Source: Glandiceps talaboti (taxonomy: Eukaryota; Hemichordata; Enteropneusta; Spengelidae). From it: a DNA stretch of 64,000 nucleotides. Below the pieces are notes generated by a model. The model was not told the origin of the DNA. It ran no database searches and was given only the letters and a program-made list of their open reading frames with translations. Shown in pieces: positions 7,531-60,454 of this stretch. How positions within the stretch are numbered: the first letter of the stretch is position 1; every line of letters begins with the position of its first letter. The stretch covers positions 31,738,455-31,802,454 of the forward strand of contig NC_135551.1 of NCBI RefSeq assembly GCF_964340395.1, read 5' to 3'. The position numbers and the translations under genes are program-made.

Positions 7531-7536
7531 GCATCA

Positions 7537-20837: not shown

Positions 20838-33663
<12,826 letters not shown>

Positions 33664-35276: not shown

Positions 35277-35599
35277 TGGACATCGCAATGAGAGGTGGCT
35301 CCAGCATATCGACACTTTCACTTGTTGGTGGAACCTTTTTTCTTGGTGGTGCATATATCCGGAGCCACTAAAGAATAAACCACATAAGGCCCTCTTTAGG
35401 CATAAATAGTTGATCCTGTGAGTTTCAGCTGGAGTCTACATTGACACTTTCCTACGGATTGCATACTGCGCGGGTGTATCTCAGGTAGAAAACTTGCCCA
35501 GAGACTATACACACGGTCGATCGCCACCCTGGGATGAAATGTTGCATAGGACGAGTGTATACATTCTGATTGGCTGTTGTTTAGCGCACGTCTGAAGAC

Positions 35600-37260: not shown

Positions 37261-37261
37261 T

Positions 37262-38450
37262 CGATCACAGTCTCAAGTTCACCGTCGCGTCGTGTAACAA
37301 CTGCAGTCAGTTTGTTCATACAGTTCAGTCTCAAATTTTCTGACCTTTGCTAGATTTTGACCAAAATATCGTATATGTGGCAAGTTACAAGGTTAAACCC
37401 TCGCACACCAAAAATGTTGCTCGGTTCATAATATCGCGCCGGACTCAAATATATTTGAATTTCATCCCTATATATGGCTAATCTTCAAATCAGATATTGT
37501 CACATGACATAAAACAATAATTTCACAACTTACAGTATTGTTTTCAAAGGTTGTGCATAAGTTTTGGTAACGTTAAAGTTTGTGTTAGAAATGTCTCAGG
37601 ACACTTCATATTTTGTGTCTAAGATGTACATTGTTTGATATTGGATGACACAACTCAAGTAACTGCTATTGCAATTTACTCTATATGTCACAGAGTGTGA
37701 CACACTATGACTGCATCCATATATTGGCATACTGTATCAATTTTGGTTTCAACATGCTGGCTGACCATCAACCAGGTTTTACTTGCATCATGCCTTGATA
37801 CTGTCATACATGAACTGATGTAATTGCTTGACAAACTACATAGTGGTGCAAAAAGACTTTCATAGACATGCAGATTCCTATACATCTACAATTTATATTC
37901 CTATACACCTGATTGGCAGACAGAGCCACAATGTGTTGTAATGTTTAGATTTGGTCAACCATAACTCAAATCTTGTTTTTATTGAATGCTGTCAAAAACA
38001 TCTGAGAGACTGAGATGGCATGTACACTACAATTTGATATGTCAGCTGTTATCTGTTTAAATTTATCTGTATGGTAATAGCATGTCCCACCCTTTCAAAA
38101 TTTTGGCATATTTTGAAATCAGTGTTGGTAAAGTGAAGTACAAACTTGAATTTTTGCTTTAAGCCAGTCATCTGCTAAGTTTCTACATTTAGTAGGCTTC
38201 CGCCTTTTGATTTCCCAGTCAAAAAGTTGTCAAAGCTTGGGGGTCATTGCAGTTCAGTCATGGAAAATCCTGTTCTATCAACACTATCTTAGAATGAAAG
38301 CCTATCAGCTTCATGAGGCAAACTTAATTTGATTGGACAATCATTGAACATATGCTGGTCAATATAGAAGCTTAGATTGCAGAGTTCTTTTAATAGTTGA
38401 GATTATTGATATTAATGATTTCCTCTCTCTTTTCCATGATCTGTCACTAG
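37262..38450. other. upstream intron or intergenic DNA, no feature recognised
   Basis: AT-rich sequence between the duplicated promoter-like segment and the first recognised coding exon of the plus-strand gene. No conserved coding frame was seen. Confidence 0.4.
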
Positions 38451-38463
38451 TATCAGAGCAGAA

Positions 38464-41400
38464 ATGTCTGTCAAGTCATTTATAATGGTAAGTAGTTTTC
38501 TCTTAGTGATTGTGAAACATTTACAATTTGCAACAACTTTCCTGCCAAAATTTTTCCAACAAAGTTCTTGTTAATTTGTATTATTTGGACATATATCAAC
38601 TTTATTTTAGACTGGAATGAAAGAAATGTTATTTACTAATGAAGAGTCTTACACGTACATTTGCGAAAAACATTCATGAATTAAAGTTAATTCTGTGTAT
38701 AATTTGTCTGTAGTAACAAAAGGAATACAGTATATGATTATTTTCTCTTTGTTGTCCTGTAAATCATTGGTATTTTTATAGTACACCTTGGTGTACATTA
38801 GGCTCAAGTATCAAGCTTGTAAACACAACCTATGTATTAGATACATTGTTGTGTATAAGTGACTGGTCGATACACAATCAACTGTTTTCCCAACTCATAT
38901 CAGCTATATGACAAGAATTTCCATTCTGGTTCATGTCTAACGGTTTAAGGGGGATAATCAACTGTAACTTTGTCTCCACCCTTTTGGTCCCCATAGTGTG
39001 TGGAAAAAAGGTCAGATAGATACCTAAATAAATGTATGTGATGTGTGTACAATCTCATTCTGCACAAATTATATAAGTATGTGACTAAATGCAGCACCAG
39101 TCAGACAAAAATGGGATACTCTGTTATGTTTTTCAAATATCTTAATTTCACAGTGTAATTCATGTACTTTTAAAAATAATTCACAGACAAGGCAGAGGAG
39201 AGGGTCTCCTGCAATCTCTCCCAGAGAAGTAGCAAAGAAATGTGTTACAGAAGGTATTGATATACCTAAGGAAGGCCGGTTTGAGATACGCTTTATCAAC
39301 AGTTTTAAAGGTGAGACAACTGTAAACTTTTTAAATTAATGAAAACCAAAAAATATGGGAGCATAGGAGGTGTGTTTCTGCCATATGTACTTACATGTGA
39401 GCATTACTTCAGAGTTTACATATCTGTATAACCAGATTCAGAAGTATACTGTTTACATAAATTTGTATTAAATGTATGTTAAAGGTTGGCGGTCGTCTAA
39501 TGCGCATGTGTGAGTTTTCGCAATGTTCGAGTGTTTACAAACAAGTTGAATTGTTCCCTCTCCAGTCTGCAATGAGGTGTCCTTCAGCATTCAAAGTTTC
39601 TGTCAGTGTTATAAACCATTTCCCATTTCGTCTGTTGCACATCTGAGGGACCCACCGCCACACATGTGCTACAGATGACCACCAACATTTAAGATGATGT
39701 ACAAGATGTACACTATGTTAAATAGTATGAAAGGACTTTTCTCATTTTAGTAAATTATTGAACTTCCATGGAAAGGAACAGTCTCTGACATACTATTGAA
39801 TACATTGTCCATCAGTTGCCCTTGTATGCATCTGCACTTTTCTCTGTATTAAAGTGTTTTTACTAATATTTTATTTGAATGATTGGGATTTGGAGTGGTA
39901 AATAAATTATTATTATTTTGTATTATCTTCATGCAGTGGTGTTTAAAGTCATCATATGTAATAAGTATCCCCCTTCCTACCCCTACCCCACCCCCATGAC
40001 AATACATGTCAAGTTAGGGATCATTATGCAGTGTCATGTTATAATGTAGAGATTGAAACTGTGGGAGCCTTCAGTAATTGCAAGGAGGGGCAGAGCAAAT
40101 CACCCTTGGTTTGTCACAAGCACTGACCCCTCCCAAAATTCTCCACTTTTAAAACCTGACCCTCTCCTTGTTTCCTTTAGTTAAAAATGACCCCCCCCCC
40201 TCCCCAAGCCACTGCATGGGTACAAGATTTACAGCTACTGAATATCTTTTCATGAAATGTTAGTGACCAAATTGTTCTGATTTTTTATTTTTGTGGGGGG
40301 GGGGGGGGGGGGGGCACAAAAAAAACCTAAATGGAATGTCGGGATGAACAAGTGCCAGATATGTAAAATAAAATATATAAGCAAAATGGTACACATTCTT
40401 GACTTTGTGCACAATAGCCTTCAGAAGGTTTGTTAGCATTATGGCTCGATGACAAAGCAGTGCAGTTATTATTAGTTCCTGTCGGACATAATCCGGGACG
40501 GGGATTTATAGATTGGGCTCAGTGTGTCCGTGCATCCAGAGTCATTTCTCAGACATAACTGAACCTATTTCTCTCAAACTTGGCACAAGGACAACACACT
40601 ATGGGGTGCATATATGCACGTGATTTTCTTTTGAAAATGATTACATCAGAGATGGAGATTTTGGGTCAAAAAATGTGATTTTTGGTTTTAAAAAAAGCTT
40701 AACTCCAAAACTACTGGGTAGATTGGCATGACATTTGGTGGGAACATTCTTAGGGGTGAGGGTATTGGGATTTATTTATGACATGATGAGATTTCCCCAA
40801 TAATATGCAAAATAGGGCTAAAAATGTGTCTTTTTGGTCAAAAATGTATAATTCCAAAACTACTCATCATATTATGACTGAAATTTGGGTGGAACATTCT
40901 TCAGGGGGTTAATACTAAGAGTTGTTCATGGTATGATGGTCCCATCAGTGATATGCAAATTATGGCTAAAAATGTGTCTTTTTGGTAAAAAATCTACAAT
41001 TCCAAAACCACGGAACAGATTGGACTGAAATTTAATGGGCATGCATCTAGGGATGTATGGACGAAGAAATAGTAAGCATACAACAATACCATTAGTGATA
41101 TGCAAATTAGGTGTGAAAATGTTCATTTTTGGTAAAAACTTACATCTCCAAAAGTACTTGGTCAGTAAGTCTTAGTCTGAAACTTGGCGAGATGTTTCTG
41201 AAAGTGTTATTCTGCAGATTTTCTTCAAATAATTTGGCAAAATTGGCCCTAGCAACCATGAGACACCCTTAGCAACAAACAAATGGCAGTATATTTTGGT
41301 CAAATAATAACATCATCTGGTGGGCAATTCAATAAACATTCAAAAAATGTATGCAAATACCATATCAACCATGGCCACACCCATAGCAACAGCCAAACAG

Positions 41401-44181
41401 TGCTGTATTTCACAAAGATAATGGGGATTCTTAGACAAGTGAACAATCATTCCAAAAGCAACCATGACCACGGCCTTAGCAGCAAGAAAACGGGAGTACA
41501 TTCTTGTCAAATAATGCTTTCTTTTGTGATGCAGTCTAAGATGGTTACCAGGCAGCCATTTTGTTATGATCTTAATTACATGTACAAAGTTATTACACAG
41601 ATACAGCAGCTATTGTGTTACAAAAACTCATGTTGGAACCCAATTGGTAGACATGAATTACCAGTAGCATGTCATTTGTCAATTTGTGATTGCACCTATC
41701 CCAGATGAAAACTGATACAATCAAAATGGTAACCAACACCACCACAAGAGTGGGGACTGTGTTATCTATGATGACTTGTTCACTTAAATCTTTTCCATAG
41801 GTAGTGGATAGAACACATAAGTTGACAAGCTTATTATATTTCCTAAAAATCCAGCAGAAACCTACTGCAATGATCATGATCAAAGTCTGACTAGAGACCA
41901 TCTGACTTAGCGAGCTAGGCACTGTGCTGAAAGATGCTCTAAAGTCAAACTCAATCATACAAATTTCACTTCCTAACTGACAATAAAGGGAACCAGAGTC
42001 CAAAATTTAAGGAACAAATTATTGATAACTTTATGATTTTATCAAAACTACAATGACTTGTATAAAAGTTAAAACAATAAGGGGTCATACCAAACAATGC
42101 CCAGTGCACTGAAGGACAGGTAGATGCAAAATCCACAATTTGGTGTATTGTACAGAAGTAAAGGCAAGATCAACCACAACTCAATTTTGCCCATGTACCT
42201 GCCCCTCAGCCCATCAGTTTAGTACATTCTCTTGGAATATTCCAGAAGGGTTTATTTTGCATAGAGATAATATGAATACTATAATACAGGAAGGGTCTTA
42301 ATCCTTATCTTATGTGTCTTATATAGCACATAACGATGTGATCAATCACTGCAAATTACTCCTAAAGTTATGGATTTGTTGACACACAGAAAGTTTTCCC
42401 AACAGTGCAATTTTGCATTTATTTTTCAATCCCACGATTCATAAGTGACATATATATTTACTTGTTCAGCTAATTAAATATGTCAGTAATGGCATGAAAA
42501 AAGATAATGAAAATTGTAGCCAAACAAGTATTCTGTTCTATTCTGTCAGCCCATTTAACTTTGTGTTAATTGGTGATTTTATGAATGTACACGGTCAACA
42601 ACTTTGTGCACAGGTAGAACTCTGTAGTAATTAATATGGAATACGTTTACAGCAACTGTTGGCTTTTCTATGTGTTGTTGTATCTGTGTTTCATCTGTGT
42701 ATGTATCTGTGGGGTGCAGGGGGTCTAAGAAAAAAAAGAAATCATAGGGGTGCCAGATAATTTATATAAGGTTTAGTTGGGGGGGGGGGGGGGGGGGCAA
42801 ATAAAAAAACATCGCTTGATTAGAAATCCCCCCCCCCCCCCACCACCACGAATTAAACAACACAATTAATGTACACTCCCTAAGTGGTACACTGGTTCAG
42901 ATGTCATGAGGCCATATAATCTCTGGAGCCAATGTTTGACAGATATGTATGGGCAGATAGCATTCAGTTAGCATCATAATGTCAATTGTCAATTTGTAAT
43001 ATTACATCCATTCCATACAAGAAGTAGTACCATTTAAATGGGACTGAACACTTCCCCAATGGGTTGTTACATGTATGATTACTTGTTCATATCATGATGT
43101 GTAATGCTGTCATTATTAAAATGGTCCTTCAATTTACTAGTCTGATCTATAATATGGTTCTTCTCTACAGGCAAAGGTGTGTTTGCGGCAAAAGAGTATA
43201 CAAAAGGGGACTATTTAATGTGGTACGAAGGTGAAAGACTTTCAGGAAAAGAGGCATCTGAAAAGGAAAATGAATATGATGAAACAGGAGATGGGTCTTA
43301 TATTTTCTTTTTTAAAGACAAGGGTAAACCTGTGGCGTAAGTAGGGATATTCTTTTATTATTTTTAAGAGTCTCTTAATTTGTCTGTGCTCTCATTTTTT
43401 AGCACAACTGAACTGGTTCAGTAGTGCTATAGGCATTACAAAGTATGTCTGTCTGTGTGTATGTATGTGTGTAAACAACTTAAAGTCAAAAAACTGTGGG
43501 ACCGATTGCTTTGATATTTGGTGGTTATGTTACCTGTGGTGTATAGTTGAGAAATTGTTCAAATGAAAATGATCACATCAACAAACTTAAATTCCAAAAC
43601 TACCGGGTAGATTGGCCTGAAATTTGGTGGGAACATGCTTAGGGGTGAGTAAATGAAGATATGTTCATGACATAATAATTTCCCCCAAAATATGCAAATT
43701 AGGTCTATAAATGTGTCTTTTTGGTCAGTAATGTATAATTCCAAAACCACTCAGCAGATTAGCCTGAAATTTGGGTGGAACATTCTTCATGGTGTTTATC
43801 CTGAGAAATGTCCATGATATAATGGTCCCATCAGTGACATGCAAATTAGGTGGATAAATGTTAATTTTTGGTCAAAAATGTATCTCTAAATAGTAGTGGG
43901 TCAATTAGGGACCGGTCAGAATTTACGGAGGGGGGGGGGGGGGGGGGGCTGGGGAGAAATTATTTTGGTCCAAAAAAATTTTGCAGCCCCCCTTCGCGCT
44001 CTCAAAAAATTTCATGGCCCCCCTAAATGAACCCATATAACTTTTAATTCAGAGATAATTTGGCAGACACACGCTTTCTTGGCTATTGACTGCCTCATAA
44101 TTAAACGAGAAAGAGTGAGAGAGATACAGAGAGACAGAGAGATAGACAGATACAGAGACAGAGACAGACAGAGAGAGAGAG

Positions 44182-44216
<35 letters not shown>

Positions 44217-47200
44217 TAGACAGCGACATGTAGTCAGAGACCGAGACCGGGAGAGACAGAAGTGACAGAGACTGAGACAAGAGAGAAATATATATACATA
44301 CAGACAGATAGCGACAGAAAGACAGAAGAAGACAAACACAAATACATTCGCCTGGCTGTCACAAACTCATCATTGAATATAGGTATTAGAGGTTATTGCG
44401 GCAAAGCCGCAAGAAATTTTTAAATTTACATGGTAAACGACGCTACTGAGGTTTAATTTGGTACATATTATGAGCAAAATATTTCATGGCCCCCCCCCCC
44501 CCCCCCCTTCAGACCATCGGAATTTTCATGGGCCCCCCCCCCCCCTTCAAGCCTCCAATTTTTTTCATGCCCCCCCCCCCCCAATTTCTCCCCAGGGCCC
44601 CCCCCCCTGCCGTAAATACTGACCGGTCCCTTATACTGAAACTTGGTGAGATGTTTCTGAAAGTGTTTTTGTACAAATTTTCTTCAAAACTTATGACAAA
44701 ATTGGCCCTAGCAACCATGACCACGCCCTTAGCATCAACCAAATTGCAGTATATTTCAGCGAAATAACAATATCATCTGGTAGGCAAGTGAGTAAACATT
44801 CAAAAAAAATATTCAAATACCCTAGCAACCATGACCACGCCCATGGCAGGGATCACTTTGGGGCGCGATAACGTGATATTTACGATGTCAAAATGGACAT
44901 GTCGCGTCCAGAAAACTCAATTGGGAAAAAAAATTGCACTGTCGACACTAACAGTGCCTCAGTGATAAACGCGATCTAAAAACAATCCTCTAAAATAAAA
45001 GCTTTTGTATAGTGACTAAATACAAGTGGTTTCTAAGTACCAGTAGTTCAAACGACTATTAAAACTGATCTGATCTGATCAAATTTGCCATATTGTTTTC
45101 AATATGAATAAATGCGTAAACCCGCTAATGCTAGTAATGGAATGCATGATAGTAATACTAATAGTTACCGGTGTGATTCGCACTATGGTATAAACTTCCA
45201 GTAAATCAATGGCAAAACCACCGTGAAAAAGAGTTTACCTGACTAATATACCTTTTGAAAAAGTGATGATGTTATCTCTGATTATCGGTTTCATATTCAA
45301 TTTTACTCTGAAAATATCGTTTAGTTTGTAGTTTTTCGTTGTCTGATCGTCGACTCGCAACATCACACGACGAATGCATGGATACTAAATATGACAGCCA
45401 TTACGTCATATACTATAGCGAGTTTTCAGTAAGTCTCGTGTATCATGAGTTTTCGGACTACACGATGTGTAGCTAGCCTACATACAACTATTTGGTGTTT
45501 CAAAAGTCTAATTTATCTTTGGACATTTAGCTTTTTAGCTCCGCTGTCAGCGAAAGCTGAAAGCGTAGCTTTAGGTATAGGTGGGTATTGAGGTATAGAG
45601 AGTAGAGTGAATCATAGGTGTCCGTCAAACTTTTATATTTTTACTATCTAATCCGAAATTGACAGTCGGAATTCTTCGATATTTGGTGTGCATGTTCCCT
45701 GGGGGGAGGCTATTCAGATTTGTTCATGCCAAGTTGATCTGTGCCATTTTCAATTTTTTATGATTTTTTTTCATAAAATGTCATTTTCATCAACTCCTTG
45801 AAAACCTCTTATTAGATTGCTTTGATATCTGGCATGTTGATGCGCAGGGGGTAGCTTACTCAGATTTGTTAATTTCAAGTCAGCACATCCTCATTTTTAT
45901 TTTTTATGATTTTTTTTTTGTAAATTGAAAAAAAAATGAATATGTTAATGAGCATAATGACCGACGCCATATTGGAAATCAGTCGACGAGACTTTAAGTA
46001 TACTGCCACTTTTCAAAAGACACTATTGACGTCAAACAAGCAATGTAATATGTGCTATAGTCATAATTCTACGCATTGGGCGCCCAAATGAGAAGCGTTT
46101 GTTCGAAACAGGGTTGTAAACTTCAAATCCAATTCTGCACCCTTCTACATAATCAGCCAGTCCGCAACATCCTCATTTGCATACTCTATCCTGATTCGAC
46201 TAGAAGCTGAAGGTGACCTCATTTGACCGAGCGATTTTCCACAGCAAGTATCTTGAGTATCAACACAGGACGTTCTTGGTACTCACTAAAATCACACTTC
46301 AGACCCACTATAAAAGTGTGATGTTTTCAGATAACATGTAACTTGTGGTTAATTCTATATTGTCGTGCAATTTGGAATGACAGTGAACCAGAATTCAGAC
46401 AACTTGCGTAAGGAAGGGCATGCCAGGCATGCGGTTGAAGTTATGGCCGACAGTTCACATGTAAAGTTAAACGACATGAACGTGTCTTGCCTTTCCAAAA
46501 TGCAAATATTTGCCAAGTAAAAATCATTAAAATAATTACAACTTTAATTTGGCTTCAGACTTTGCATTATGTTTTGCGTACATGTTTTTTGTATCTTTCC
46601 CCGTTTTACATGTAAATCCGAAAAGGTTCTCTCTCATCATGTCATCAGTGTCAGTGATCATACCGCGCGGGGCTGCTTTGAGTACGAGCGAAGTGAGACA
46701 TGTTGAGGTATTTTGTTGAGAATTATAAATATTGCGAAATGTCAAGTACAAGGTTTAAATACAATGGAATGATAAAAAAAATGGCAGAGTCTGCTGACAG
46801 GCGCCGGTCACAAGAAACACTGTGAATTAAAATATCAGACGATGTATGTATTAATCGCCGACAATCCACCCGTATGCACAAGGGACTAACCCGGAAGCAA
46901 GTCGTTGTCAGCCATACGTTACAGTGGTAACGTCGTCCGAGAAATAGCTGCGTTCAGAGTGTCATTATTCACAGAATTGTTGTTTTCGAGTGAAAACCCG
47001 TCTTGAATTGTATAACTCTAACAAATGAAGACATGTCAAGTTATATTTTGAAAGTTGTATCGCTAGTTTGAGACGATTTTCTCACGTACTATAGTACTAT
47101 CGAGGCTTACTTGGAAGTAGTCCTGCTTGAATACGGAGGAATTCGGGACTCGATTCTGACAATTGTCCCTCCCCCTCCGTCCTGCGAAGAGCCAGCCGTG

Positions 47201-50200
47201 AAATACGGACTTACTAAAAATGCTGGTAACTATGAATAAAATCGCCCAGTGGTCAAATATTAGCAATAAATCTATTATTTAGTCTGTTTACCTCATTTTG
47301 ACTGCAAAAGTCCTATAGCGGATGACCAAAACTATCAAAATCGGAACTTTTCAAATTCTATCGTAAATTTAATCACTTCTCCTTACGTACGTCGGCGCAA
47401 GTGTCTCTGGGTAATTATTCATCTCACTCAACGATATCAAATGTGGCGGTGTTACGAGGGTTTTTGAATGTTGCAGTTCGCACTTGAAAAGGTCTGATTT
47501 CGACGCTTTTTGTGATCTGAGCAGGGAATACTACCGTCAGTGGAATGGAAATGGCATAGATATTCGATCGGTTGCTAATATTTGATCGGTCGGTAGGTAA
47601 TTCTTTTGCAATTGGCGCGAGTACATTTTGCTTGCGGTGTTGTAATAGGCAAACTCTATTGCTCTTTGCATGACGGTGTTTAGAGTCAAGTCAGTAATAC
47701 AGACTCGTGCACCGTCATGTAAGCAGGACTAACTTGGAAGTAGTAGGACCTTACTCCAGTTCATCGGGAAGTTTAGCCAGTCCGATAATTCTTTCTGGTT
47801 TAGTTTACAACACTTTTGATCACGCAGATTTTGTTGTTGTGATGAAAAGAAATAAAAAAAAGATCATTTCAACCATTTCTTTGTGTTTTCTTTGTGAAAG
47901 GTAACCGAACATGAACGAGTGTTACCACTGTAACGTATGGCTGAGAATGACTCTCTTCCGGGTACTTGAGATTGTCGCCGTACGGAAACTAAGATGGCGA
48001 TTAATACATTTCTTCCCTATATATATCTACCACAGCTAGTACAAGTTGAATGTTGTTGACTTTGTAAATTTGTTAGAAAATTCAAATTCAAATTGCCTCA
48101 AAATTATTTTAGATCCCTAGTTTATTTCATTCATCATTAAAATTTTCCAGGGTTACAGCTGTAAGACACTGGAATTATTTATAGCCAACCTCAAAATCCT
48201 CTTTTTTTCTTTTTCTTGTGTGCATTTCCCAGTCATTTTTTTCTGAGATTTTGTGCAATTTTTCATAACAGTAGATTTTTGTTATAAAATGGTGACTATG
48301 GTATAAAAGTACAATACATTACCAACTTCTGTGTAAAATGTGTTTTATAGTGAGACATCATATGAAACCACTAACCACTTTATTGCATCGCTAAAACAAA
48401 ACTGCATAGTGAAGAGCTGAAGACCTGAACCACTTCTACATGTCACCAAAATAAAAAATTAAATTTAAAAAAAAAAAACAGCGGAGCTATTCTGACCGAT
48501 AGGTCGCTTGTCTAAGAAAAATAATTAAAAAACTCGTTTTAAAAATCAATAACTCAACTTGTGATTTTGTTATTGGTTTCAACTCGTTTTTATTTCTTTA
48601 CCAAGTTATGTATAGTCCAAGTTATTTTATAAGTCACAATATGTCGGGGGTCAGACTAGACTAACTGTTGCTATTTCTTGATCCCCATTTACTCATCTCA
48701 TTGTTTTTGTTTATTTTTGTTACAATGGTTTTGTAATCATTTATATGTTTGGATAAATAAAACAATTATTAAGTTAATCACAGCATGCCTTTACATGTAG
48801 GAAGCTGGAATGACATCTATAAACTACTTCCAGTACCAACACATTTTATGCATATCGTTATGCAAATGATATGTAAATATATATGCAAATTAGCCACCTG
48901 CCATATTTTGACTTCCGTCCCACACAGTTTTCAAATTCTCTCACTCGTTTTCGTCATATGGGATTTTATCTCATGCAGTTCTTGCGCCAGGGTAATCCCT
49001 GCCATGGCAACAGCCAAATGGCAGTGTATTTCACAAAGTTAACAACAGGGATTCTTAGATACATGTACATGTAATTGAATAAATATTTTAAAAAAATATG
49101 TAAATATGCATAGCAACAAGGCCATGCCCATAGCTCGTGATTCATATATAACAACAGGGATCAATAGATAAACGAATAAACATTTAAAAGGAGTGTAAAT
49201 ATACCTAGGAACACGACCACACCCATAGTAACATGCAAATGACCACATATACTACAAAGCTGACATTGGGGGTTCAAAGATGAGTGAACGAACAACAAAA
49301 AGTGTATGCAAATATATCCAGCAACATGACCGTGTGAATAGCAAATATTGCAAAGATAACAACAGGGTTGGATACGCAACTAGATATGCATTCAGCAAAT
49401 TAGTACTTATACTTAGCATGGATAATATGGGTTATCATTTTTATAAACTGTAAAGTTGTGCTACAATGCCATTGGCGGTATTTTTGTATTTTCCTGTCAT
49501 ATCTCGATATCGGTGAATGTAGGCGCTAGATGTTACAGATGATGAGACAGGGTAGTTGGGGAATATGTGTACTTCAATCAGTAGCCATGATCAGAATGAT
49601 AGAGTATATGATCAAATACAGATTCTGACAAGTATTAATTACTATAAAGTTATCTGCTTGCATAATGTGATGGCACTGTTCATACAGCAATGGTACGGAT
49701 ATGTGACTGCTTTTTCTTTCAAACCTTGTATGCAGGTACATAATATACCATATACAGAGTCTTGCATATACTTGTTGATTTGATGTAATATTTTAGGCAG
49801 TCATAATGTTTTAAACTTTACATTCCCTTATCAGCCATATAAGAATGCCTCTGCATGTACCATATATATTCTGAAATTTTTGTTTTCTCAGAGATTCCAC
49901 TTCCCAAATTTGATGTTATTTTGATGAAGTTTTACACAAAGACTGTATATATGTACACCATGGTTTACATTTTTAGTTCAAGTACTTCCAAAACATGATC
50001 TAAACCCAACCCCCCTTCTGCCAGCTGATACCTGTAAATAAATGATTACCAGCAGGGACTGTATGATATCCTGATTCTTCCATTGTAGGTGATCTGCGAA
50101 TGAAATGGTAACCTGAAAGGTAAAATAGCTCATCAAATGTATTCTGTGTTGGACCTAGATGAAACATTAACACAATGTATATATCTCTGTTGGGCTCTTT

Positions 50201-53200
50201 CATTTTCAGTATTGATGCCACCAGAATAGAGACAATTGCCAAATATGTCAATGATGACCACGTCAAGCCAAACAGCACGATGAAAAAAGTTGTTGATCAA
50301 TCTGGAACCAATCATCTCTGTTTATTTGCTATAAGAGACATCGCTGTCAATGAAGAAATACTATACAACTATGGAGAAGGGTTAGACTTGCCATGGAGAA
50401 AGGTATATAATTTCATACATACACAGTGACCAATTTCATGTGATTTCATACTCTCAACTCGCCAATTTGTCGATCCTTTGTAAAATGATTATTACTTATC
50501 AGCATACGTAGGATTACTGCGACACAACTGACAACATATATCATTCTCAGCATCGTATTAAAGGAAAGGTCCAACTTTTCCCACTGGTCTTTAAAAATGT
50601 CTCAATCTTTCCTGATTATTTCTGGTTATTTACTTCATTTTTAGTGTTCAATCATGGATAAACAGGGTGCAAAGGAAAAGCGACTCAGATGCAACTTTTG
50701 TGACAAAGAATGTACTGATGAAGGTGAAAAAGAAATATGTCGGCAGTGGCATTTACAAGGTATGTGATATTAATAATTGTTTAATCAGAACTTTGGGGTT
50801 TGCTATTCAAACTAAAATTTAGTCTAGTGTATGTATTCTGAATAAATTATCCATGTATATAAAAATATAAAGATTTTTAAATGGTTAAAAACAATGCATG
50901 TAGGAAACATTGCTATACACAGGGAATGGTAACATGATGTGAAAATGTCATCATAAGAATACTAGAAATGATCAATGTTATGGAATTGTCAACCTGATGA
51001 TGCAAGTCCGTGCAACAGTTGATTGGGTAATGACGCTTAATTACTATATGAATGGAAGATTGAAAAGCGTATAATTTTGAAAATGAGGTCCTATACAATT
51101 GTCAATAAGCTTTTGGTAGGAGAGAAACGATAATACCAAACGCTTGTGGATAGGCTAAGTATTCACTTAAATTTACATAGAAATATCACACAAAAATTTG
51201 TGTGCTGAAAATATCTTCTTATTTTACCCCCGAAAATGTCCTTTATATGTTTCACTTTGCCGATCAAACTTGCATGCTATTTGAAAATCTGCCATAATAA
51301 CATCACAAGTTTGTCACCCAACTCAAATGACATGTAATAGCATAGGGCTGACTTCATCAACTGGATACCTTGAAGTCATCCAGTTTAAACTACATGCAAT
51401 AACATCGATCTCAGTACTCTTATCAACTTGGATACCTTGAAGTCATCCAGCTTTTAAAAACTACATGTACATGCAAAAGTTGCATAAATCTGACTCTATC
51501 AACATGGATACCTTGAAGTCATCCAATGCAATAGATGCCTTGAAGTCATAAAGTTCAAAACACATGCAATAGCTGCATAGATCTGATTTTATCAGCGTGG
51601 AAACCTTGAAGTCATCCAACTCAAACTACAGGCAATAGTTGCATGGATCTAACTTTATCAGCTTTGATACCTTGAAGTCATCCAACTCCAACTACAACAA
51701 CATACAATTATAGAATAGATCTGACTTTATGAACTTGGATAGCTTGATGTCATCCAATGCAATGGATGGCTAGCTTGAAGTAATCCAGTTCAAACTACAT
51801 GTAATAGTTGTATAGATTTAACTTTATCAAAACATCTAGTGGACTGAGCAATGGATGCCTTGACTCATCCAGTTCAAACTTCATGTTACAGTAAAAGTTG
51901 CATAGGTCTGACTTTATCAACTTGGATACCTTGAAGTCATCCAATGCAATGGATGCGCCTTGAAGAAGTCCAGTTCAAACTTCATGTTACAGTAAAAGTT
52001 GCAATGACCTGACTTTATCAACTTGGATACCTTGAAGTCATCCAGTTCAAACTATGTGCAATATGTAGTTGTATTGATCTGACTTTATAAGCTTGGATAC
52101 CTTGAAGTCATCCAATGAAATGGATGCCTTGAAGTCATCCAGTTCAAACTATATGCAATATTTGCACTGAACTGACCTTATCGAAACCATGTTAGACAAT
52201 AGGATTTTAAACGTACAGTACCGTATCCATACCGTACTGTAGCATAGTGTACAGTACTTCAACCATACTGCACAGTGTCAGTACATTACTGTTTCATTTT
52301 TGTGGCTTGTACTGTATAACCTCTCAATTTCAAACATCATGATTTAAATGCATGAGTTTAATAGTTACGTACTTGACAGGAGACACTTTAGTACTTAGCG
52401 ACTTTCCCCATAGGGTCCTGATGTGTGTAAGCTATACCTTAAAAATGGTAGTAATACTAGGTACTGATCACACACCATATTTCAAAGTAGTAATTTTATT
52501 ACCTTAGTTGCTAAAAGCAAAGTAGCTGTATATGTAGTATGTACAACAAATATTATACTTCACCATTTAAATAGATTTCAGAGTGGAAAGGTAATGCTAT
52601 GTCTTCCAAAATGCTTCATAAAGAATCTTTAGTTTGTTTGGCATGTGCATGTATAGTTATATATAACATTATTTGTTTTCATTTTATTAGGTTATCACAT
52701 TTTGCCTAGCGGGCCATACCCTGTGAAGGTAAGTTCTCTCTGACAATTTGAAGTTTTCTATACTGTAATACTCAAACATGGGTAATTGCTGGCTTTATCA
52801 TGAATTATGTAATAGTCCAGGCTTTTTCCCCACACATTATCATATAGAACTATGAATTAAGTAGTAAATTTTGAGTGATATAAATACTTCACTTACTATA
52901 AAATCTTCGAAATTTTCTTGAACATTTGATAATGTATTGTGGGTATGATTTCTTTTTTTCTGACTAGTTTTATGTTTGAAAGACTTAAAAGGTGTCAGGA
53001 GTTGAACTAGGGTTTTGTCACTGTTTGGGAAGTTAATGTATCAAAGCAATATTTTAGGGAGGTAATTCAACCTGTCACATGGCAGATCTTAAATAATAGT
53101 AAATATTGATTACAAAGTAGATATGACAGCTAGTATGTCCTTATATATTAATGTATCTATAGATTTGTAGACCATTAGAAAATGATTAATTAAATTTATG

Positions 53201-56200
53201 TAGGCTTTAACTTCATTTGGCACAGAATACATAATAATAAGGTGTTCAATAGCTACCCTGCATCCACACACTTAATGGCTGGGTATTCACCTACTGTGGT
53301 GTTTGCAATATTTAGCACATAATCAATTAACAGTGAAATCAACCATGATATATCACATGGTACATGACATTTTGTGGTCCTTTAAAACTGTGTTTTCTTC
53401 TTTTGATTTATTGCAGGGTGGAAGATGGAGTGAAAAAATCACATTTCTTCGAAAAGTTTCAAGTTTGAAAGAAGTAAATACAATTAAATATTGCAAAAGC
53501 AGTCTCATTGCAGCTGGAAGGGCAAAAGTCTTCCTGGGATTATACAAAAATGAACATGCAGTGGCCATCAAACGAATTGAGAGTGATGTAGTTCAATGTG
53601 ATGAATTGGCAATTTTCAGACTGTTATCTGACAAAAGTGTACCTGCTCTTGACAATGTTTTGCCACAGATTCATGTAGAAGAAGATGATGATTTCACTTA
53701 TCTAATTACTCCATTGTGTGAAGGCAATGTGTGCGAGTTAATAGAGAAGAAATTTTCAAGTGACTTGCCAATCACTGATCTGACCACAGTCAAATGTCTA
53801 TCATTATGTAAGGACTTCTTGACTGGTTTGAATGAGCTGCACAGAATTGGAATTATACACAGAGATATAAAACCAGAGAATCTTCTAATAGGTGAGTAAA
53901 AAGCTGTCCTAGCTATGCTAGTTATCAGAAGCCACAAAGTGACTTGGTAGACTTATAGATTGGGCTCTGTCCGTCCATCCGTGTGTGCGTGTGTCTGTGC
54001 GTCTGGTGTCATTTCTCAGACATGACTGAACTGATTCATCTCAAACTTGACACAAGAACAATACACTGCGGCTTACACTTGCATAACAAATAATTTCATG
54101 ATACGATCCAATATGGCCACCAGTCGGCTATTTTGTCATGATTTTTTCATGTACACTGCAGAGGCAGCATTTGGATATGAGTGGACTGATTTCTTTCAAA
54201 CTTGTGCCATTGATTTAATGCAGTTTTTTAGTGACACGTTTGTATACTTGTCTAGTACCATCATATACAATACCATAAAGTGTTAAACTTAGCAGTTTTT
54301 GATTTTCAATATTATTGTAAAGTTTACACTCATTGGTCTGCAAGGTTGTTTTCAAATGATGGGACAGTATTTATAATTGTACATTGTCACATTAATGTTT
54401 GCCACAGTAAGAGTACAAAATAATGGTTGTAGTTTCTTACAGCTAACTGTTTTTCAAAATGTTTTGTCTCTGTAGATATTTCTGGGAAGTTAAATATCAG
54501 TGATTTTGGTATAAGCAAACGTCTTAACTTTGGGAGAACAACACTGACAACATGCATTGCAGGTACATGTGCATGGATGGCTTCTGAAACATGTTTATCA
54601 TTCCTCTCTGGATGCGCCTTTCAATACAGGAAATCAACCGATATCCAGGTAATACATATTCATGTTTGAATACAATTCTTAAATGTGATGTACAACATTT
54701 TTTAATTTCCACCAGACTTGATGTACTGGTAGACTGGAACCCAGGCATATATGTATCAATTTGGTGCTGAAATTTTGTTAGTCCACGCCAGACAAAGTCC
54801 GGAATTCAGACTTATGGATTGGGTTCCATCCATCCATCCGTCTGTCTGTGCATGCATGTGTTTGTCCAGAGCCATAAATTTCTCAGACATGCCTGGAATG
54901 ATTTGTTTCAAATTTGGTACAAGGATAACCCACAATGGCATACATATGTAGTCACTTAGTTTCGTTGAACATTTATATATTCCATATTGTATCGATCAAT
55001 ACATTTTCTTCTTCTAGTTGAGTAAGTATATCTTCAAACAAGAGTATTTTTAGTTCTCAGCATAAAATGGTATGATTATTACTTAAATCAAGCTAATTAA
55101 GTTCACATCTCTGTCAGGTTGCTGGCTGTGTGTTGTACTACATTATGACCAGAGGACATCACCCTTTCCAGTCGACTTCCCCTTATAGTGAAGATTTAAA
55201 TGGCCTCAGAGAAAACATCATAAAAGGCTGCTACAACATTGAACGTGTTTGTGCATTTCCAGAGTTCAAGGTATTGATTGATAAAATGCTTGCTGCTGAC
55301 CCAAAAGAAAGACCTCTGAGTGGAGAGTGCCTTCAAAACTTCCTTCATATTCAATCATTATATGAACACACAGCAACAGTGGTGAGTCACAGAAATTTTA
55401 GCATTTTCATGTCTTTTCAAATCAAATCAAATGGATAGTTTATTTGAAATGATTTGCCTAGGGGAAAATAATTTGCACTGAACTGGTTTTAGTGAAGCCT
55501 GTTATAAGCTTTTCTATATTTAGGGTATTTAAAGGGCATCTAGGACGTGACTTAAGTATGATCTGAATCTTGGTCAGATATAAGTTTCAAAGTGTTTATA
55601 TGTTAATGCTTGAAAGAGTAGTCATGTGATGTTTATCAGATCTGTCTGAATGGGTTGTGTGTAAAAGTTTTTTGTAAGGCATTTGATATTCACTGCAAAT
55701 TAGGTTGGTACTATGAATGGAAAATCAGAAAAGTTCTTAAAATATCATTTTTCTGAAACATGGCATCACCTTGCCATCTTGGCACTAATTACATGACTTG
55801 TGTGCATTGTACGTTTTGATGGGGGGGGGGGGGGGGTAAGTACTGTGTGCGAGGATTCTAGGACAATTGCACAACTGCCCCCAGACAATTGCCCCTATGA
55901 AAAAAACACTTCAATGCATATAGAAAAATGTGACAGCAAGTATTATAGATTAACCGAGTTTGTCGTATCATTCTGTTTCACTTAGACATAGTCATCATAA
56001 ATCAACTTGGTTTTTCTTCTCTCGCTTTGAACAAACTCAATAATGACTGACAAGACGATGCAGAACACTCTGACCATGTTGGTGACTGGCAAGCAATATA
56101 TATCATTTAGGTGTGAAAAACTAAAAAAGTATGTGAATTATGGCGGTAAGTTAAATCATCATGCCGGCTTTTATAATTGTCGTAACAATAATCACAGACA

Positions 56201-59200
56201 ATAGAGTAGAACGTGTTAATGTGAGTATAAAGTATGTGAATTACGGCAGTAAGTTAAAGCATCATGCCGACTTTTATAATTGTCATAACAAGTATCACAG
56301 ATGACAATAGAGTAAAACATGTGAATGTAGTGAGTATAATCATAGACAATCCTTTGTCTATGGTATAATGTACGCAAATTGCGGCGGTAAGTTGTTGACT
56401 GTGACTTTTATGAATGACAAACTCGGTTAATCTGTAATGCTTGCTGTCACATATTTCTAAATGTATTTAGAAGTTTTTTTCATTCGGGGGCAGTGGTATG
56501 GGGGCAGTTGTCCTGTTACCATGCACAAGGAAATGGAAACAAATATTTGTGTGTGTGTGCAATTCCAATGGTTTACTTGATGAGTGACCCTTTACAGACA
56601 GTGCTGTAGCTTAAAAAGATAATTCTTCATTGACTTTGAATCTTTTTCAGAACACTTGTGATGTAGTGGGTGATTCAGGCCTTGACACAGCTAGTTGTAC
56701 CACTGGTATTATAACAGAATGTAATGAAGACAGGAAAAATGATGCCTTGGCTGCCTTAGAAATGTCCAATACTGTTAAGGAACGTCTTGATATTACTGAA
56801 GATGCTGTCTGTTCAGAAGAATTAACATATTCTCCTCCTGAAAGCAGTTCATCAAATCCTGACAATTCTCTACTTTCATCATTCTGTGACTCGTCAAAGA
56901 GTGGATCACCAGTGGGAGAAGCCCAGTTCTGTGGCAAAAATATGACAGTGACTTTCTCTGGAAAAGAGCTTACAGATGAGCTAGCTGATCCAGAATGTGT
57001 AACCATGGATTCAAATGAGAGGGAAAATGCTGTCACTGTGGAAATGGATACCTATATACAGAGCACATCAGTTATCCCCCATAATTCTAGGAAGACAAAC
57101 CATGGTACCATTACTGAAGCAGTCTCTTCTGTGTTTCAAAAAGACAGACTGAATATAGAAGATCCAGTTCATCCACTACCACAATCAAACAGCTCAGAAA
57201 TTGAATCACAGTTGAGGGAAATGGTGACTACCTGTAGCAACGAAGTCACTGGTATAGTGCCAGCTGATACAGAATGTGTAACCATGGATTCAAATAAGAA
57301 TGAAAATGCTATGGAGATACTAAAGTGCCTGTCTGTGGGGGTAGTTCATCCCTATGATGATGCCACTAATTGTGATGAAAACCTGGTGAATTCAGTGATA
57401 TTGAGCAGCGATGGTGACACAAACCTGGTGAATTCAGTGATATTGAGCAGTGATGGTGACACTGGTACTGTTCACAATAGCCTGTATCCTAGCGTTATTG
57501 TAGCCAATGATATCTACAGTGATGGTGATCACATCTTCAGTGACCATGATGGTGATGACAGTGTCAATGACCCAGATTATCATCCACCTCAATCAGATTC
57601 AGAAGACATAGTGAGTGACTCTTCAGAATCACTGCAAGATCAGATGTCCACACCAGCCTTAAAGAATATAATTGATCAAGTTTGCAGTAAGTTGGATGGT
57701 GACAGTGTCGGTGACCCAGATTATCATCCATCTACATCAGAAGGAAATATGCAGAGTGACCGTTCAGAATCATTGCAAGGAGAATTATTCACACCAAGTG
57801 TAAAAAGGAAAAACGAAGGGACTCGCAGTGCATTGACAGTAAAGCATGCCAAAGCTAAAACAATGTCAGGAAAGAGAATATGGGACAGAAAGCACTTTTG
57901 CGTGTACTGCCATAAGGAAATGGGAAATCTTTATCGCCACTTTACACGCATACATTCTAAGGAAACTGATGTGGCCCATGCTCTGAGTTTTCCTTGTGAT
58001 TCCTTTGAGCGTGTGAAAATGTTGAGAAAACTCAAATATAAAGGTAACTTTCACCATAACTACCAAGTGGCAAAATCTGGAAGAGGGGAAGTGGTGCCAT
58101 TCAAAAGACCATCCCAAAACTCTAAAAAAAACGGCACAGACTACTTACCTTGTAAAGCATGTCTTGGATATTATTCAAAAAAAGTGATAGGAAAACACTG
58201 GCAAAACTGTGAGTTTGCCAAAGAAAAGACCAATGAAATGGTAGGGAGAAAAAGGTTCCAGAAAGCAGCATCATACTTACTTCCTGTAGCAGACAGTGCA
58301 AGTAAACTAATGCTTGAAAATGTTTTGCCCAACATGAGACAAGATGATGTCACTTTGGTTGCCAGAAATGACCGGTTGATTATGGATTTTGCTACAAGGA
58401 CATATGAACGAAATGCTCATCTGAAGAAGAACAAGACATTTGTGTCTGAACGAATCAGAACATTAGGCCGACTATTAATCAAGATGCGGCAGATAGATAG
58501 CAGTATTTTGCAGTTGGATGACTGCATACATCCAGCAAAGTTTCAAACAGTTGTACAAGCAGTACGATCTATGGCTGGTTATGACGAAGAGGCAGCAACA
58601 TATACCACACCCTCCCTTGGGTTAAAAGTTGGATATTACCTTAAAGATTGTGCCCAGATTGTTATAAGTCATTCAATCCAAAGTGAGTCCAAATCAGATG
58701 AAGACAGGGCCACCAGATTCATGGATCTCTATCGGCTTGAGTGGGAAAACAAAGTCTCGAGCCATGCTGGACATACCCTTCAAGCAAGGAGAGCAAACAA
58801 CACTAAACTGTTACCATTGACAGAAGATATTGTGAAACTCACGAATCGGTTACAGGACATTATGCAAAACACTGCCAAAAATCTGAGAGAGAAAACCTTG
58901 GTTGAGGGATCATGGTCGTCGTTGTGCAAGGCAACCCTGGCACAAGTGATCTTGTTCAACAGACGTCGTGAAGGGGAGGTCTCACGGATGCTATTGACCA
59001 CATATGTAAAGAACAAAAATCAGTCAGCTGGTGAAGATGAGGAAATAACTGCAAGTCTGTCTCCACTAGAGAGGAAACTATTGAATCATTTCACCAGGAT
59101 AGAAATTCCAGGGAAAAGAGGTCGAAATGTGCCAGTTTTGTTAACTCCTGAGATTAAAACCTGTGTTGACCTGCTTTGTCAAACAAGGTCTGAAGCAGGT

Positions 59201-60165
59201 GTACACCCAAACAACCCATATCTGTTTGCAAGGCAGTACGATTCCCTCGAGTGTCACAGAGGAAGTCATTGTCTTCGACTTTATGCATTTAGTTGTGGTG
59301 CCAGAAGTCCAGAGAGATTGACCTCAACTAATCTTCGAAAACATGTGGCCACAATCTCACAATTCCTTAATCTAAATGACACTGAATTGGAAATTCTTGC
59401 TGGCTTTCTTGGACATCGTATAGGTGTCCATAGAGAATACTACCGCCTACCTCAAGCAACGCTACAGGTGTGTAAAATCAGCAGACTCCTTCTGTCACTG
59501 GAACAAGGAGATCAGAACATATTTAAAGGAAAAACACTAGATGAAATAGGAACAGATGGTAAGCTGATGTTGATTTCATTGCAGTTACTGGACATGTTTA
59601 ATTAACCTTTAAAATTTACTAAATATGTACTTAGACTGTTTACTTCAGACACACACACACACACACACAATGTTGATTTTGCTGCTGTAGTGGGCTTCAT
59701 GAGTAATACAAGTCAGTTGCAATAATTGTTTTAGATTTTTTTGTGTTGCTTTGTTTCTGTACACAGAAACTATATTTGGCGAACTCAGTGTAGGGATTTA
59801 AAAATCTCAATCTCATCACTGGAAATTAATGTTATATTTGGGATTCCCAGGTGGCATTGCATGCATGACTTTAACCTTCAAAATTAACACTTTCAGGAGT
59901 AAAAACCTTCCCACCAAAATTTCTTGAACGAATTTGTTGTGTTCTCACAGTTTTAATGGATTGGAAACTCTAGTTAGCCTAAAATAAATGATTTTTTTGT
60001 GTCTGTTTCTTCTGTTGACATCTACTTATACTTATTTCATATATCAATTCTTATTTACAGTTGTGTTGAATGAAAATGAACTAGGTGAAGCTTCTCAACA
60101 GGAAAGCATGACTGAGAATGACCCACCAGTGCTGATGGACAACAATTATGCAAAGCCACATGCAT
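38464..60165 (+). CDS. SET domain - zinc finger - IRE1-like kinase - tyrosine-recombinase fusion gene (11 exons, 3' partial)
   Basis: Exons 38464-38487, 39187-39310, 43171-43336, 50210-50402, 50645-50759, 52691-52728, 53417-53891, 54476-54648, 55118-55381, 56651-59558 and 60061-60165 all have GT-AG borders, and every junction preserves one reading frame (intron phases 0,1,2,0,1,0,1,0,0,1). The start ATG (38,464) is the first in a small exon after the acceptor at 38,450. Predicted order: SET domain (about residues 40-168), C2H2-like finger (185-209), protein kinase (235-515), acidic serine-rich linker (525-935), zinc-finger-like motifs (about 940-960 and 1025-1045) and tyrosine recombinase (about 1250-1470). 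Reading exon 10 through to its own TAA at 59,603 gives 1,508 aa. Using the donor at 59,558 continues into exon 11, whose donor (GCAT/GTAAGT, 60,166) implies further exons past the satellite. The likely role is nuclear, combining chromatin or DNA recognition with phosphorylation; this is inferred. An alternative is two genes split between exons 9 and 10, but no start codon or promoter separates them. Confidence 0.8.
40480..41660. repeat. interspersed repeat family, copy 1, in intron 2
   Basis: Contains phrases shared with 43.4-44.9 kb: AAATGTGTCTTTTTGGTCAA, AATTCCAAAACTACT, ATATGCAAATTAGGTG, GAAACTTGGCGAGATGTTTC, AATTGGCCCTAGCAACCATG. The start (ATTTATAGATTGGGCTC, then TCAGACATAACTGAAC) matches 53.94-54.06 kb and 54.80-54.93 kb. 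Several short in-frame runs here are not coding. The class of the element is unknown. Confidence 0.7.
42775..42842. repeat. G-tract / C-tract inverted pair
   Basis: A G-tract of about 19 at 42,779-42,797 and a C-tract of about 14 at 42,828-42,841 flank a 30-bp spacer, so the segment can form a hairpin. It may be a small relative of the G/C-tract MITE family. Confidence 0.6.
43390..44850. repeat. interspersed repeat family, copy 2, interrupted by a MITE, in intron 3
   Basis: Shares phrases with the copy at 40.5-41.7 kb: TTCCAAAACTACCGGGTAGA, AAATTTGGTGGGAACAT, ATATGCAAATTAGGTC, AATGTGTCTTTTTGGTCAG, GAAACTTGGTGAGATGTTTC, AATTGGCCCTAGCAACCATG. The copy is split at 43,907/44,631 by an inverted-repeat element. 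A shorter related tail (TTTCACAAAGTTAACAACAG, CATAGCAACA) is present at about 48,990-49,400. Confidence 0.75.
43908..44630. mobile_element. MITE with 27-bp inverted termini and TTA target duplication
   Basis: The left terminus is GGGACCGGTCAGAATTTACG and the right terminus read in reverse complement is GGGACCGGTCAGTATTTACG, followed by G-tracts on both sides. TTA flanks the element at 43,905-43,907 and 44,631-44,633. The inner part holds a GACAGA-rich simple repeat (44,105-44,345) and no transposase. Comparison with the related uninterrupted repeat copy near 41,170 supports a clean insertion at TTA. Confidence 0.88.
45535..48495. mobile_element. larger inverted-terminus element in intron 3, with nested inverted repeats
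   Basis: The outer ends are TAGCTCCGCTGT (about 45,537) and ACAGCGGAGCTA (about 48,479), a 12-bp perfect inverted repeat. Inside, about 86 bp at 46,846-46,931 (ATGTATTAATCGCC through CCATACGTTACAGTGGTAAC) is repeated in inverted orientation at 47,921-48,010. The internal DNA has no clear transposase frame. The boundaries of the outer element are approximate and could belong to two separate insertions. Confidence 0.5.
50645..52728 (+). other. zinc-finger exons 5-6
   Basis: Exon 5 encodes KRLRCNFCDKECTDEGEKEI, then CRQWHLQ, and exon 6 adds GYHILPSGPYPVK. Cys pairs CNFC and KEC, with the His residues of WHLQGYH, could form a C2H2 or C2HC zinc site spanning the junction. It links the SET fold to the kinase. 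The intron between these exons contains a degenerate tandem array. Confidence 0.6.
51340..52185. repeat. degenerate tandem array in intron 5
   Basis: About ten diverged copies of a unit of roughly 70-90 bp, built from CTGACTTTATCAACTTGGAT, ACCTTGAAGTCATCCAGTTC and AAACTACATGCAATAGTTGC. Many copies carry an extra CAATGGATGCCTTGAAGTCA. Length and order vary, so it is older than the near-perfect arrays elsewhere in the window. Confidence 0.9.
53940..54250. repeat. interspersed repeat fragment, intron 7
   Basis: Starts ACTTATAGATTGGGCTCTGT, CCGTCCATCCG, then TTTCTCAGACATGACTGAAC and TCAAACTTGACACAAG. It matches 40,500-40,600 and 54,800-54,930, so it is part of a dispersed family inserted in introns of this gene. 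Confidence 0.65.
54765..54965. repeat. interspersed repeat fragment, intron 8
   Basis: GGATTGGGTTCCATCCATCC, GTCTGTCTGTGCATGC, AAATTTCTCAGACATGCCTG and AAATTTGGTACAAGGATAAC match the family seen at 40.5 and 53.9 kb. Confidence 0.65.
55855..56515. mobile_element. fold-back MITE between kinase and recombinase exons (intron 9)
   Basis: About 110 bp at 55,858-55,970 (AGGACAATTGCACAACTGCC, GAAAAAAACACTT, GTGACAGCAAGTATTATAGA, TTAACCGAGTTTGTC) is inverted at 56,412-56,511 (GACAAACTCGGTTAATCTGT, AATGCTTGCTGTCACA, GGGGGCAGTTGTCCT). The interior contains two direct copies of a block of about 105 bp (TATGTGAATTATGGCGGTAA at about 56,130 and TATGTGAATTACGGCAGTAA at about 56,235) plus a third partial copy. 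There is no coding capacity, and the target duplication was not resolved. Confidence 0.8.
56651..59605 (+). other. tyrosine-recombinase-like (Crypton/integrase) exon 10 with acidic linker and zinc fingers
   Basis: One 2.9-kb exon follows the acceptor CTTTTTCAG (56,650). Its first 400 codons are acidic and Ser-rich with internal repeats (NLVNSVILSSDGDT twice in tandem; ECVTMDSN twice; DPDYHP twice). Then come a C2H2 motif FCVYCHKEMGNLYRHFTRIH (C-X2-C-X9-H-X4-H) and a C2HC motif CKACLGYYSKKVIGKHWQNC. The C-terminal domain shows tyrosine-recombinase boxes: FNRRREGEVSRML (Arg I), GKRGRNVPVLLTPEI (probable beta-strand Lys), STNLRKHVAT (Arg II; the usual upstream His is Ser/Thr), FLGHRIGVHREYYRLP (His III and the nucleophile Tyr at about residue 1455). 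It resembles integrase-like proteins derived from Cryptons or related recombinase transposons. It may be a domesticated DNA-binding domain; activity is unproven. Protein end: TAA at 59,603, or splicing at 59,558. Confidence 0.85.
59648..59668. repeat. short (CA)n tract
   Basis: About ten CA dinucleotides just after the exon 10 read-through stop, within the intron that leads to exon 11. Confidence 0.9.
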
Positions 60166-60454
60166 GTAAGTTATATCAGTTCAGTCGTTATTTTTCTACA
60201 TTAAAGCTCAGTGGTTATCTGTTATGCAGTTTGCCAGTTTTCCACATGTTTAAAACAAGTATATAACTTATAATCAGCAACTTAACCATTTCTCTCTCTC
60301 CATTGTTCATTCCGTCTCATTTTTTCCACTTGCATGCTGCAGATATTTGAGGTAGATATTTTGGTCCATTTTAGTTCATCCCAAAATTCTACATTTGAAA
60401 CCAACATTATGGTGGTAGTCCAATCTGTTACATTCATTGTACTGTGTCCACAAC

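What the first reader, a model, noticed from the sequence alone, without database searches (positions are those of the whole stretch)
38464..60165. A single gene appears to fuse a SET domain, zinc fingers, an IRE1-like kinase and a tyrosine recombinase
Eleven exons with GT-AG borders join in one frame with no stop and matching phases at all ten junctions. The chance of this from unrelated exons is small. SET plus protein kinase plus recombinase fold in one polypeptide is not an architecture I can name from well-studied animals. It suggests a chromatin or DNA-targeted kinase built partly from a transposon-derived recombinase. The exon chain is seen in the sequence; the function is inference.
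Basis: partly seen in the sequence, partly recalled or inferred. Interest (0 to 1): 0.92.

Follow-up and report, generated by a model that had tools for sequence, protein, structure and literature searches.

The report
Giant jumping gene with fused enzymes
The odd acorn-worm gene is real: it joins a histone-methylase-like domain, a kinase and a DNA recombinase in one protein, and it sits inside a 35-46 kb element whose near-identical copies lie in TATG repeats elsewhere in the genome, so it looks like the engine of a giant animal transposon rather than an ordinary gene.

Summary
The exon chain is real: 11 GT-AG exons, one frame, 1528 aa. A twelfth exon outside the window (77708-77946) completes a 1607-aa protein that differs by 6 residues from NCBI's LOC144433636 of the acorn worm Glandiceps talaboti. 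Domains: KMT5A-like SET, a finger, IRE1-like kinase without KEN, two fingers, tyrosine recombinase (YR), conserved tail.

Its YR exon lies in nine places at 98.7-99.8% DNA identity, with intron flanks. Comparing copies gives a unit from window 35275 to 80877, beyond the window. All 8 left ends that could be read (of 10 places) are ...TATG|TTTGGACATCGC; all 8 right ends read are ...CTAAGCTCG|TATG; both lie in (TATG)n microsatellites. Seven copies with both ends measure 34.9-45.6 kb.

Best reading: a giant, microsatellite-targeting YR transposon in an animal, whose one recognised gene is its recombinase, fused to a SET domain and a kinase. Transposition and enzyme activities are inferred, not shown.

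The parts
35195..35274 (.). (TATG)n microsatellite, left flank; presumed target site
   Evidence: TRF: 35195-35275, period 4, 20.2 copies, 100%. 8 of 8 readable left ends in the genome end in TATG before the element.
35275..64000 (+). Giant element, left end TTTGGACATCGC...; continues beyond the window to 80877 (...CTAAGCTCG), where (TATG)n resumes
   Evidence: Homology of the other copies starts in the left microsatellite and stops at or within about 30 bases of the right one. Length 45,603 here.
38464..38487 (+). exon 1 (start codon)
   Evidence: identical with splice donor in 9 of 9 other copies held
39187..39310 (+). exon 2 (SET N-flank)
   Evidence: identical with both splice sites in 9 of 9 other copies held
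43171..43336 (+). exon 3 (SET)
50210..50402 (+). exon 4 (SET C-half, VNDDH, YNYG, PWRK)
   Evidence: this stretch scores 36.6-37.5 bits in nine genome places
50645..50759 (+). exon 5 (C-x2-C...C-x3-H finger between SET and kinase)
   Evidence: the finger and the motif GPYP-x-x-GGRWS are also in P0121 and P0231 (sequences, compared by eye)
52691..52728 (+). exon 6 (linker GPYPVK)
53417..53891 (+). exon 7 (kinase N-lobe to HRDIKPEN)
   Evidence: 567 of 567 bases including splice sites identical in the C9 copy
54476..54648 (+). exon 8 (kinase, DFG)
55118..55381 (+). exon 9 (kinase C-lobe)
56651..59558 (+). exon 10 (Ser/Asp-rich linker 525-930, two zinc fingers, YR about residues 1095-1460). Presumed catalytic: R1297 58967-58969, K1346 59114-59116, T1417 59327-59329 in place of His, R1420 59336-59338, H1446 59414-59416, Y1455 59441-59443
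   Evidence: fold match to XerH/XerD/Cre; pN/pS 0.45 in the finger+YR part and 2.2 in the linker among 8 copies
60061..60165 (+). exon 11; exon 12 at 77708-77946 lies beyond the window
60457..64000 (.). 36/142-bp tandem array in intron 11; runs on beyond the window
   Evidence: exon 10 to exon 12 is 18.2 kb here and about 9.9 kb in the C9 copy (coordinates)

Best explanation
The sequence is one copy of a giant DNA transposon of Glandiceps talaboti, 34.9-45.6 kb. The one gene recognised in it is a 12-exon transposase. Shown here: near-identical copies with introns at scattered sites, fixed ends, microsatellites at both ends, an open reading frame, and a recombinase-like fold with most catalytic residues. 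Inferred: the YR excises the element as DNA, joins its ends over a TATG core, and integrates by strand exchange at one TATG unit of a (TATG)n array, so that both flanks keep the array and no inverted repeats are needed. The fingers, the YR N-domain and the C-terminal tail bind the ends and the target. The KMT5A-like SET domain and the IRE1-like kinase act on histones or on the recombinase complex at target or donor, or gate transposition by cell cycle or stress. Which of these they do is not shown.
For: Nine YR-exon copies, pairwise DNA identity 98.7-99.8% (36 pairs, L009-L017); a tenth place, on C27, shows the left end only. The SET exon is in the same nine places. Introns are kept where read, so movement is DNA-based. 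Left ends 8 of 8 TATG|TTTGG, right ends 8 of 8 CTCG|TATG. The flanking 300 bp hold 13-66 TATG against 1.35 per 300 bp in window 1-34000. In the rows listed, no copy matches the window's left flank upstream of the microsatellite, and matches on the right stop at or within about 30 bases of the array. The C17 copy alone carries the variant TATTAATG, and does so on both sides, as expected if a pre-existing array was split. Exon 10 is frame-intact in 8 of 9 copies. Finger+YR pN/pS is 0.45. R, K, R, H, Y columns are 33, 34, 33, 34, 34 of 34. Foldseek ranks 1-8 are XerH, XerA, XerD; best viral match is a phage integrase (2.4e-3).
Confidence: 0.85

Rival explanations
1. A domesticated host gene (SETMAR-like fusion) that spread by segmental duplication.
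For: The architecture recalls SETMAR (SET plus transposase; recalled). P. flava and fish carry related fusions.
Against: Eight left and eight right ends fall at the same base, each in its own (TATG)n array; segmental duplications would carry flanking DNA. Copies lie on eight contigs, and C27 as a ninth.
Confidence: 0.06
2. A passive passenger: the unit moves through another enzyme or through recombination between (TATG)n arrays, and its YR is not used.
For: Microsatellites recombine; catalytic His replaced by Thr; no activity data.
Against: The ends are unique sequence next to the array with fixed phase, and the finger+YR part shows constraint (pN/pS 0.45). Six non-satellite ORFs of 100 aa or more lying outside the kinase and YR frames, all in the window part of the element, hit no Pfam family at E<=0.1; a split gene could be missed.
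Confidence: 0.08
3. The (TATG)n arrays belong to the element as terminal direct repeats and are not the target.
For: Every end that could be read has them.
Against: Array length and interruptions differ from copy to copy, and the one private variant noticed (C17) is on both sides.
Confidence: 0.1
4. The fusion is an artefact: neighbouring SET-kinase and YR genes are joined only on paper.
For: No RNA seen. Ptychodera's SET-kinase (P0121) and kinase-tail-YR (P0002) models lie on contigs of different length.
Against: One frame through 12 exons. Models of P. flava, Melanotaenia, Nothobranchius and Xiphophorus join kinase sequence to YR, and P0121 and P0231 join SET to kinase.
Confidence: 0.07

Closest known systems
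Cryptons (YR-only DNA transposons; PMC3212892, passages read)
   Same: YR as the recombinase of a DNA element; CryptonS elements have 5-6-bp terminal direct repeats and mostly TATGG termini
   Different: Our family has Thr for the His of the R-H-R-Y tetrad, no DUF3504 hit, 35-46 kb, SET and kinase fused in; 'SET domain' and 'kinase' occur 0 times in that paper's main text
Starships of Pezizomycotina fungi (PMC12289983 and PMC10175614, passages read; PMC12134995, search listing)
   Same: Giant element mobilised by a YR 'captain', site preference, few copies
   Different: Fungal; captain with DUF3435 plus cargo genes; here an animal element, one gene recognised, no DUF3435 hit
Endogenous nimaviruses with telomere-repeat YRs (PMC10871703, abstract and passages read)
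   Same: Large elements in animals whose YR targets a simple repeat, (TAACC/GGTTA)n
   Different: Those carry viral gene sets; here no viral gene was recognised and the target is (TATG)n. The two YR families were not compared
SETMAR (PMC8994322, PMC8704517, search listing only)
   Same: SET methyltransferase fused to a transposon enzyme
   Different: Mariner transposase in a primate host gene; here an apparently mobile YR element, and a kinase
Uncharacterised SET-YR proteins of fish, echinoderms, oysters (P0019, P0102, P0027 and others)
   Same: Same YR and finger family, with SET; 25 of 31 SETs score 78-108 bits against the window's SET, KMT5A 71 with a longer query; the other six score 27-64
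   Different: No kinase found; mobility not tested here

Membership tests
Tyrosine recombinase superfamily | YR catalytic fold | tested here: met
Tyrosine recombinase superfamily | R-K-R-(H/W)-Y active site | tested here: met
   Columns R364 33/34, K413 34/34, R487 33/34, H513 34/34, Y522 34/34; positions assigned by motif, recalled
Crypton | R-H-R-Y tetrad | tested here: not met
   HxxR His is Thr in 34 of 34; tetrad as given in PMC3212892
Crypton | No terminal inverted repeats (recalled) | tested here: met
   60-bp ends printed and compared by eye
Crypton | Sequence relation to Crypton/DUF3504 | tested here: inconclusive
Starship | DUF3435 captain | tested here: not met
   No such hit for the window protein at E<=1
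Starship | Multi-gene cargo | tested here: inconclusive
   Six non-satellite ORFs of 100 aa or more outside the kinase and YR frames in the window part hit no Pfam family at E<=0.1; split genes and the part beyond the window were not examined in this way
DIRS/Ngaro YR retrotransposons | Reverse transcriptase in the element | tested here: inconclusive
   None among the ORFs scanned or recognised in the list; the RVT_1 ORF at 12170-14320 is outside the element
KMT5A/SETD8 | SET of this class with NHS SAM motif (motif recalled) | tested here: inconclusive
   Best PDB SET match is KMT5A (5.2e-19), but the motif is ND in 35 of 37 aligned rows, the window and P0001 both counted
IRE1 | Kinase plus KEN RNase | tested here: not met
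   Kinase best match IRE1 (1.6e-26); no PF06479 in the window protein

The most novel reading that the evidence does not exclude
Animals have their own giant YR transposons, analogous to fungal Starships. A bilaterian-wide family of 'uncharacterised' SET-YR and kinase-YR genes are their recombinases. These carry swappable histone-modifying and signalling modules that license or direct insertion into simple-repeat safe havens; in this species the target is (TATG)n.
Probability: 0.5. Interest if true: 0.93.

Novelty: new variant of a known kind. Interest (0 to 1): 0.88.

Why it matters
It would give animals a giant, near-intact, apparently recently mobile tyrosine-recombinase transposon with base-precise ends and a defined target, whose recombinase bears a histone-methyltransferase-like domain and a kinase. 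That makes the role of captured chromatin enzymes in transposition directly testable, and recasts many 'uncharacterised' SET-YR genes of fish and invertebrates as possible mobile elements. An integrase that aims at simple repeats could also be a useful tool.

Tried and rejected
Single-copy domesticated gene: my first reading, because only one Glandiceps cluster appeared among the 120 listed proteins (it stands for 16 member sequences). It was overturned when the genome search answered. The six residue differences to P0001 were first taken for allelic variation; P0001 is the C5 copy.

Papers: ten searches showed, in the rows listed, no paper on a SET/kinase/YR fusion or on an animal giant YR transposon. 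Several lists were cut (for example 20 of 272), and the library holds only CC-licensed PMC papers; Repbase was not searched.

Kinase origin: in the kinase tree hemichordate and fish YR-linked kinases form one clade (100/96, midpoint root, long branches). In the YR tree kinase presence needs at least 2 changes, with P0002 counted as kinase-bearing by eye. This leaves open ancestral linkage with losses versus module exchange.

A first alignment of the nine copies mixed strands and is void; it was redone. PDB sequence search with the YR found nothing at E<=1. Stretches fetched missed the right ends, and exon 11 was not inside the two stretches tested for it.

Not achieved: kinase copy count and end-pattern counts over the genome (tool unreachable), the right ends of the C11:4.09 Mb and C27 copies, the left ends of C5 and C11:4.07 Mb (runs of N), and element ends of the other SET-YR families.

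Full report
Observation. The eleven exons were recovered exactly as described, with GT-AG borders, compatible phases and 1528 codons without a stop. A public NCBI model, LOC144433636 of the acorn worm Glandiceps talaboti, has the same residues with 6 substitutions and 79 more at the C-terminus. Those 79 residues are encoded by a twelfth exon at window coordinate 77708-77946, beyond the window; with it the window copy encodes 1607 aa and ends in a stop. The model is of the C5 copy (contig length; 0 differences over exon 10). No RNA evidence was available.

Relatives. The YR search gave 800 proteins at E<=1e-3, 120 listed. Of the 344 proteins listed by three searches, phmmer with the window's domains finds SET+YR in 31, kinase+YR in 3, SET+kinase in 3 (one a fungal Set1-like protein, P0144) and SET+kinase+YR in one, P0001. 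P0002 begins with a kinase tail seen by eye but not by phmmer. The three fish kinase-YR proteins are from Melanotaenia, Xiphophorus and Nothobranchius; in the last two only a C-terminal part of the kinase is matched. Of the 31 SETs in SET-YR proteins 25 score 78-108 bits against the window's SET and six 27-64; KMT5A scored 71 with the longer query. Kinase tree: hemichordate and fish YR-linked kinases group together (100/96), away from fish ankyrin-kinase-KEN proteins; long branches and midpoint root are cautions. YR tree: the window's YR with Ptychodera (100/100), fish kinase-YR with Danio SET-YR (100/100), so at least two changes of kinase state.

The gene is on a multi-copy element. A genome search with the SET family gave nine near-equal hits to exon 4. 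The YR exon has nine copies of 99-100% protein identity on C4 (this window), C5, C6, C9, C11 (two), C14, C17 and C18, 98.7-99.8% in DNA with intron flanks (36 pairs). Eight of nine exon-10 frames are intact; the C11:4.09 Mb copy has a shifted frame in exon 10, though its YR stretch has no stop. The window's upstream 6 kb matches nine further places (one of them C27): seven from query position 1696-1731 on, while C5 and C11:4.07 Mb start later at runs of N. There the sequence reads (TATG)n|TTTGGACATCGC in 8 of 8 readable places, the window included. Beyond the array the flanks differ in the printed stretches; in two copies the array filled the stretch. On the right, matches stop at or just past the next (TATG)n, and 8 of 8 right ends read (seven fetched, plus the window's) are CTAAGCTCG|TATG. 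Seven copies with both ends measure 34,886, 36,466, 37,594, 37,786, 39,149, 41,033 and 45,603 bases. Exons 1 and 2 with splice sites are identical in 9 of 9 other copies held. Exon 7 with flanks is identical over 567 bases in the C9 copy. Exon 12 is open in the two further copies read, C9 (one substitution) and C18. The flanking 300 bp contain 13-66 TATG against 1.35 in window 1-34000. Only the C17 copy has the variant TATTAATG, on both sides, as expected for one array split in two. Among eight intact copies pN/pS is 0.45 for fingers+YR and 2.2 for the linker (28 pairs, few changes).

Mechanism. Shown: multiplication as intron-bearing DNA, fixed ends, (TATG)n at each readable end, signs of constraint on the YR. 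Inferred: site-specific integration by the YR at a TATG core, without inverted repeats; end and target recognition by fingers and the conserved C-terminal tail, which has no Pfam hit; local action of SET and kinase on chromatin or on the protein itself. The linker's many Ser could be kinase substrates; this is a guess.

Comparison. It works like a Crypton or a Starship captain, but misses a tested feature of each (Thr for His; no DUF3435). Repeat-directed YR insertion in animals is known for endogenous nimaviruses (PMC10871703, abstract and passages), with other genes and another target. Starship passages were read in PMC12289983 and PMC10175614. In the rows listed by ten paper searches nothing matching was seen, so I call it a new variant of a known kind.

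Noticed in passing
G000:C4:19373211 and C22:4400579 (L018, L019); C8:11568975, C6:13754472, C11:3739457, C11:17034828 (L028-L031): Further multi-copy YR families (42% to ours) with SET hits about 7-17 kb away; probably more giant SET-YR elements. Ends not mapped.
   Followed up: partly
G000, 12 places scoring 35.8 bits (e.g. C1:16925486, C13:3228145): A SET-like exon of 108-aa open frame in 12 equal-scoring copies, with no YR hit within 100 kb in the list; may be another mobile SET family.
   Followed up: no
window 12170-14320, minus strand: LINE-type reverse transcriptase ORF of 716 aa (RVT_1 2.4e-38).
   Followed up: yes
window 24779-25024, minus strand: Exon coding for an RBBP4/RBBP7-like WD40 stretch (6e-25 to RBBP4).
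   Followed up: partly
window about 34091-34475: Dispersed repeat of about 385 bp, 30 other places listed at 84-95% identity.
   Followed up: no
L040 about 7441-7590 (window coordinate 81441 on): Open frame with a weak EH-domain match (E 0.015, below cut-off) some 0.5 kb right of the insertion; possibly a host gene's first exon.
   Followed up: partly
window 1812-4700: Repetitive 962-aa open frame on the minus strand, apparently a tandem array.
   Followed up: no
P0125 (Ptychodera flava): The SET nearest to ours outside P0001 (270 bits) is joined to BRCT domains instead of kinase/YR; other YR relatives carry FHA, THAP, PDZ or MYM domains: modular swapping.
   Followed up: partly
window 53417-53891: Kinase glycine loop AAG-RAKV is one residue shorter than in P. 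flava (AAGSRGKV); kinase may be weak.
   Followed up: no
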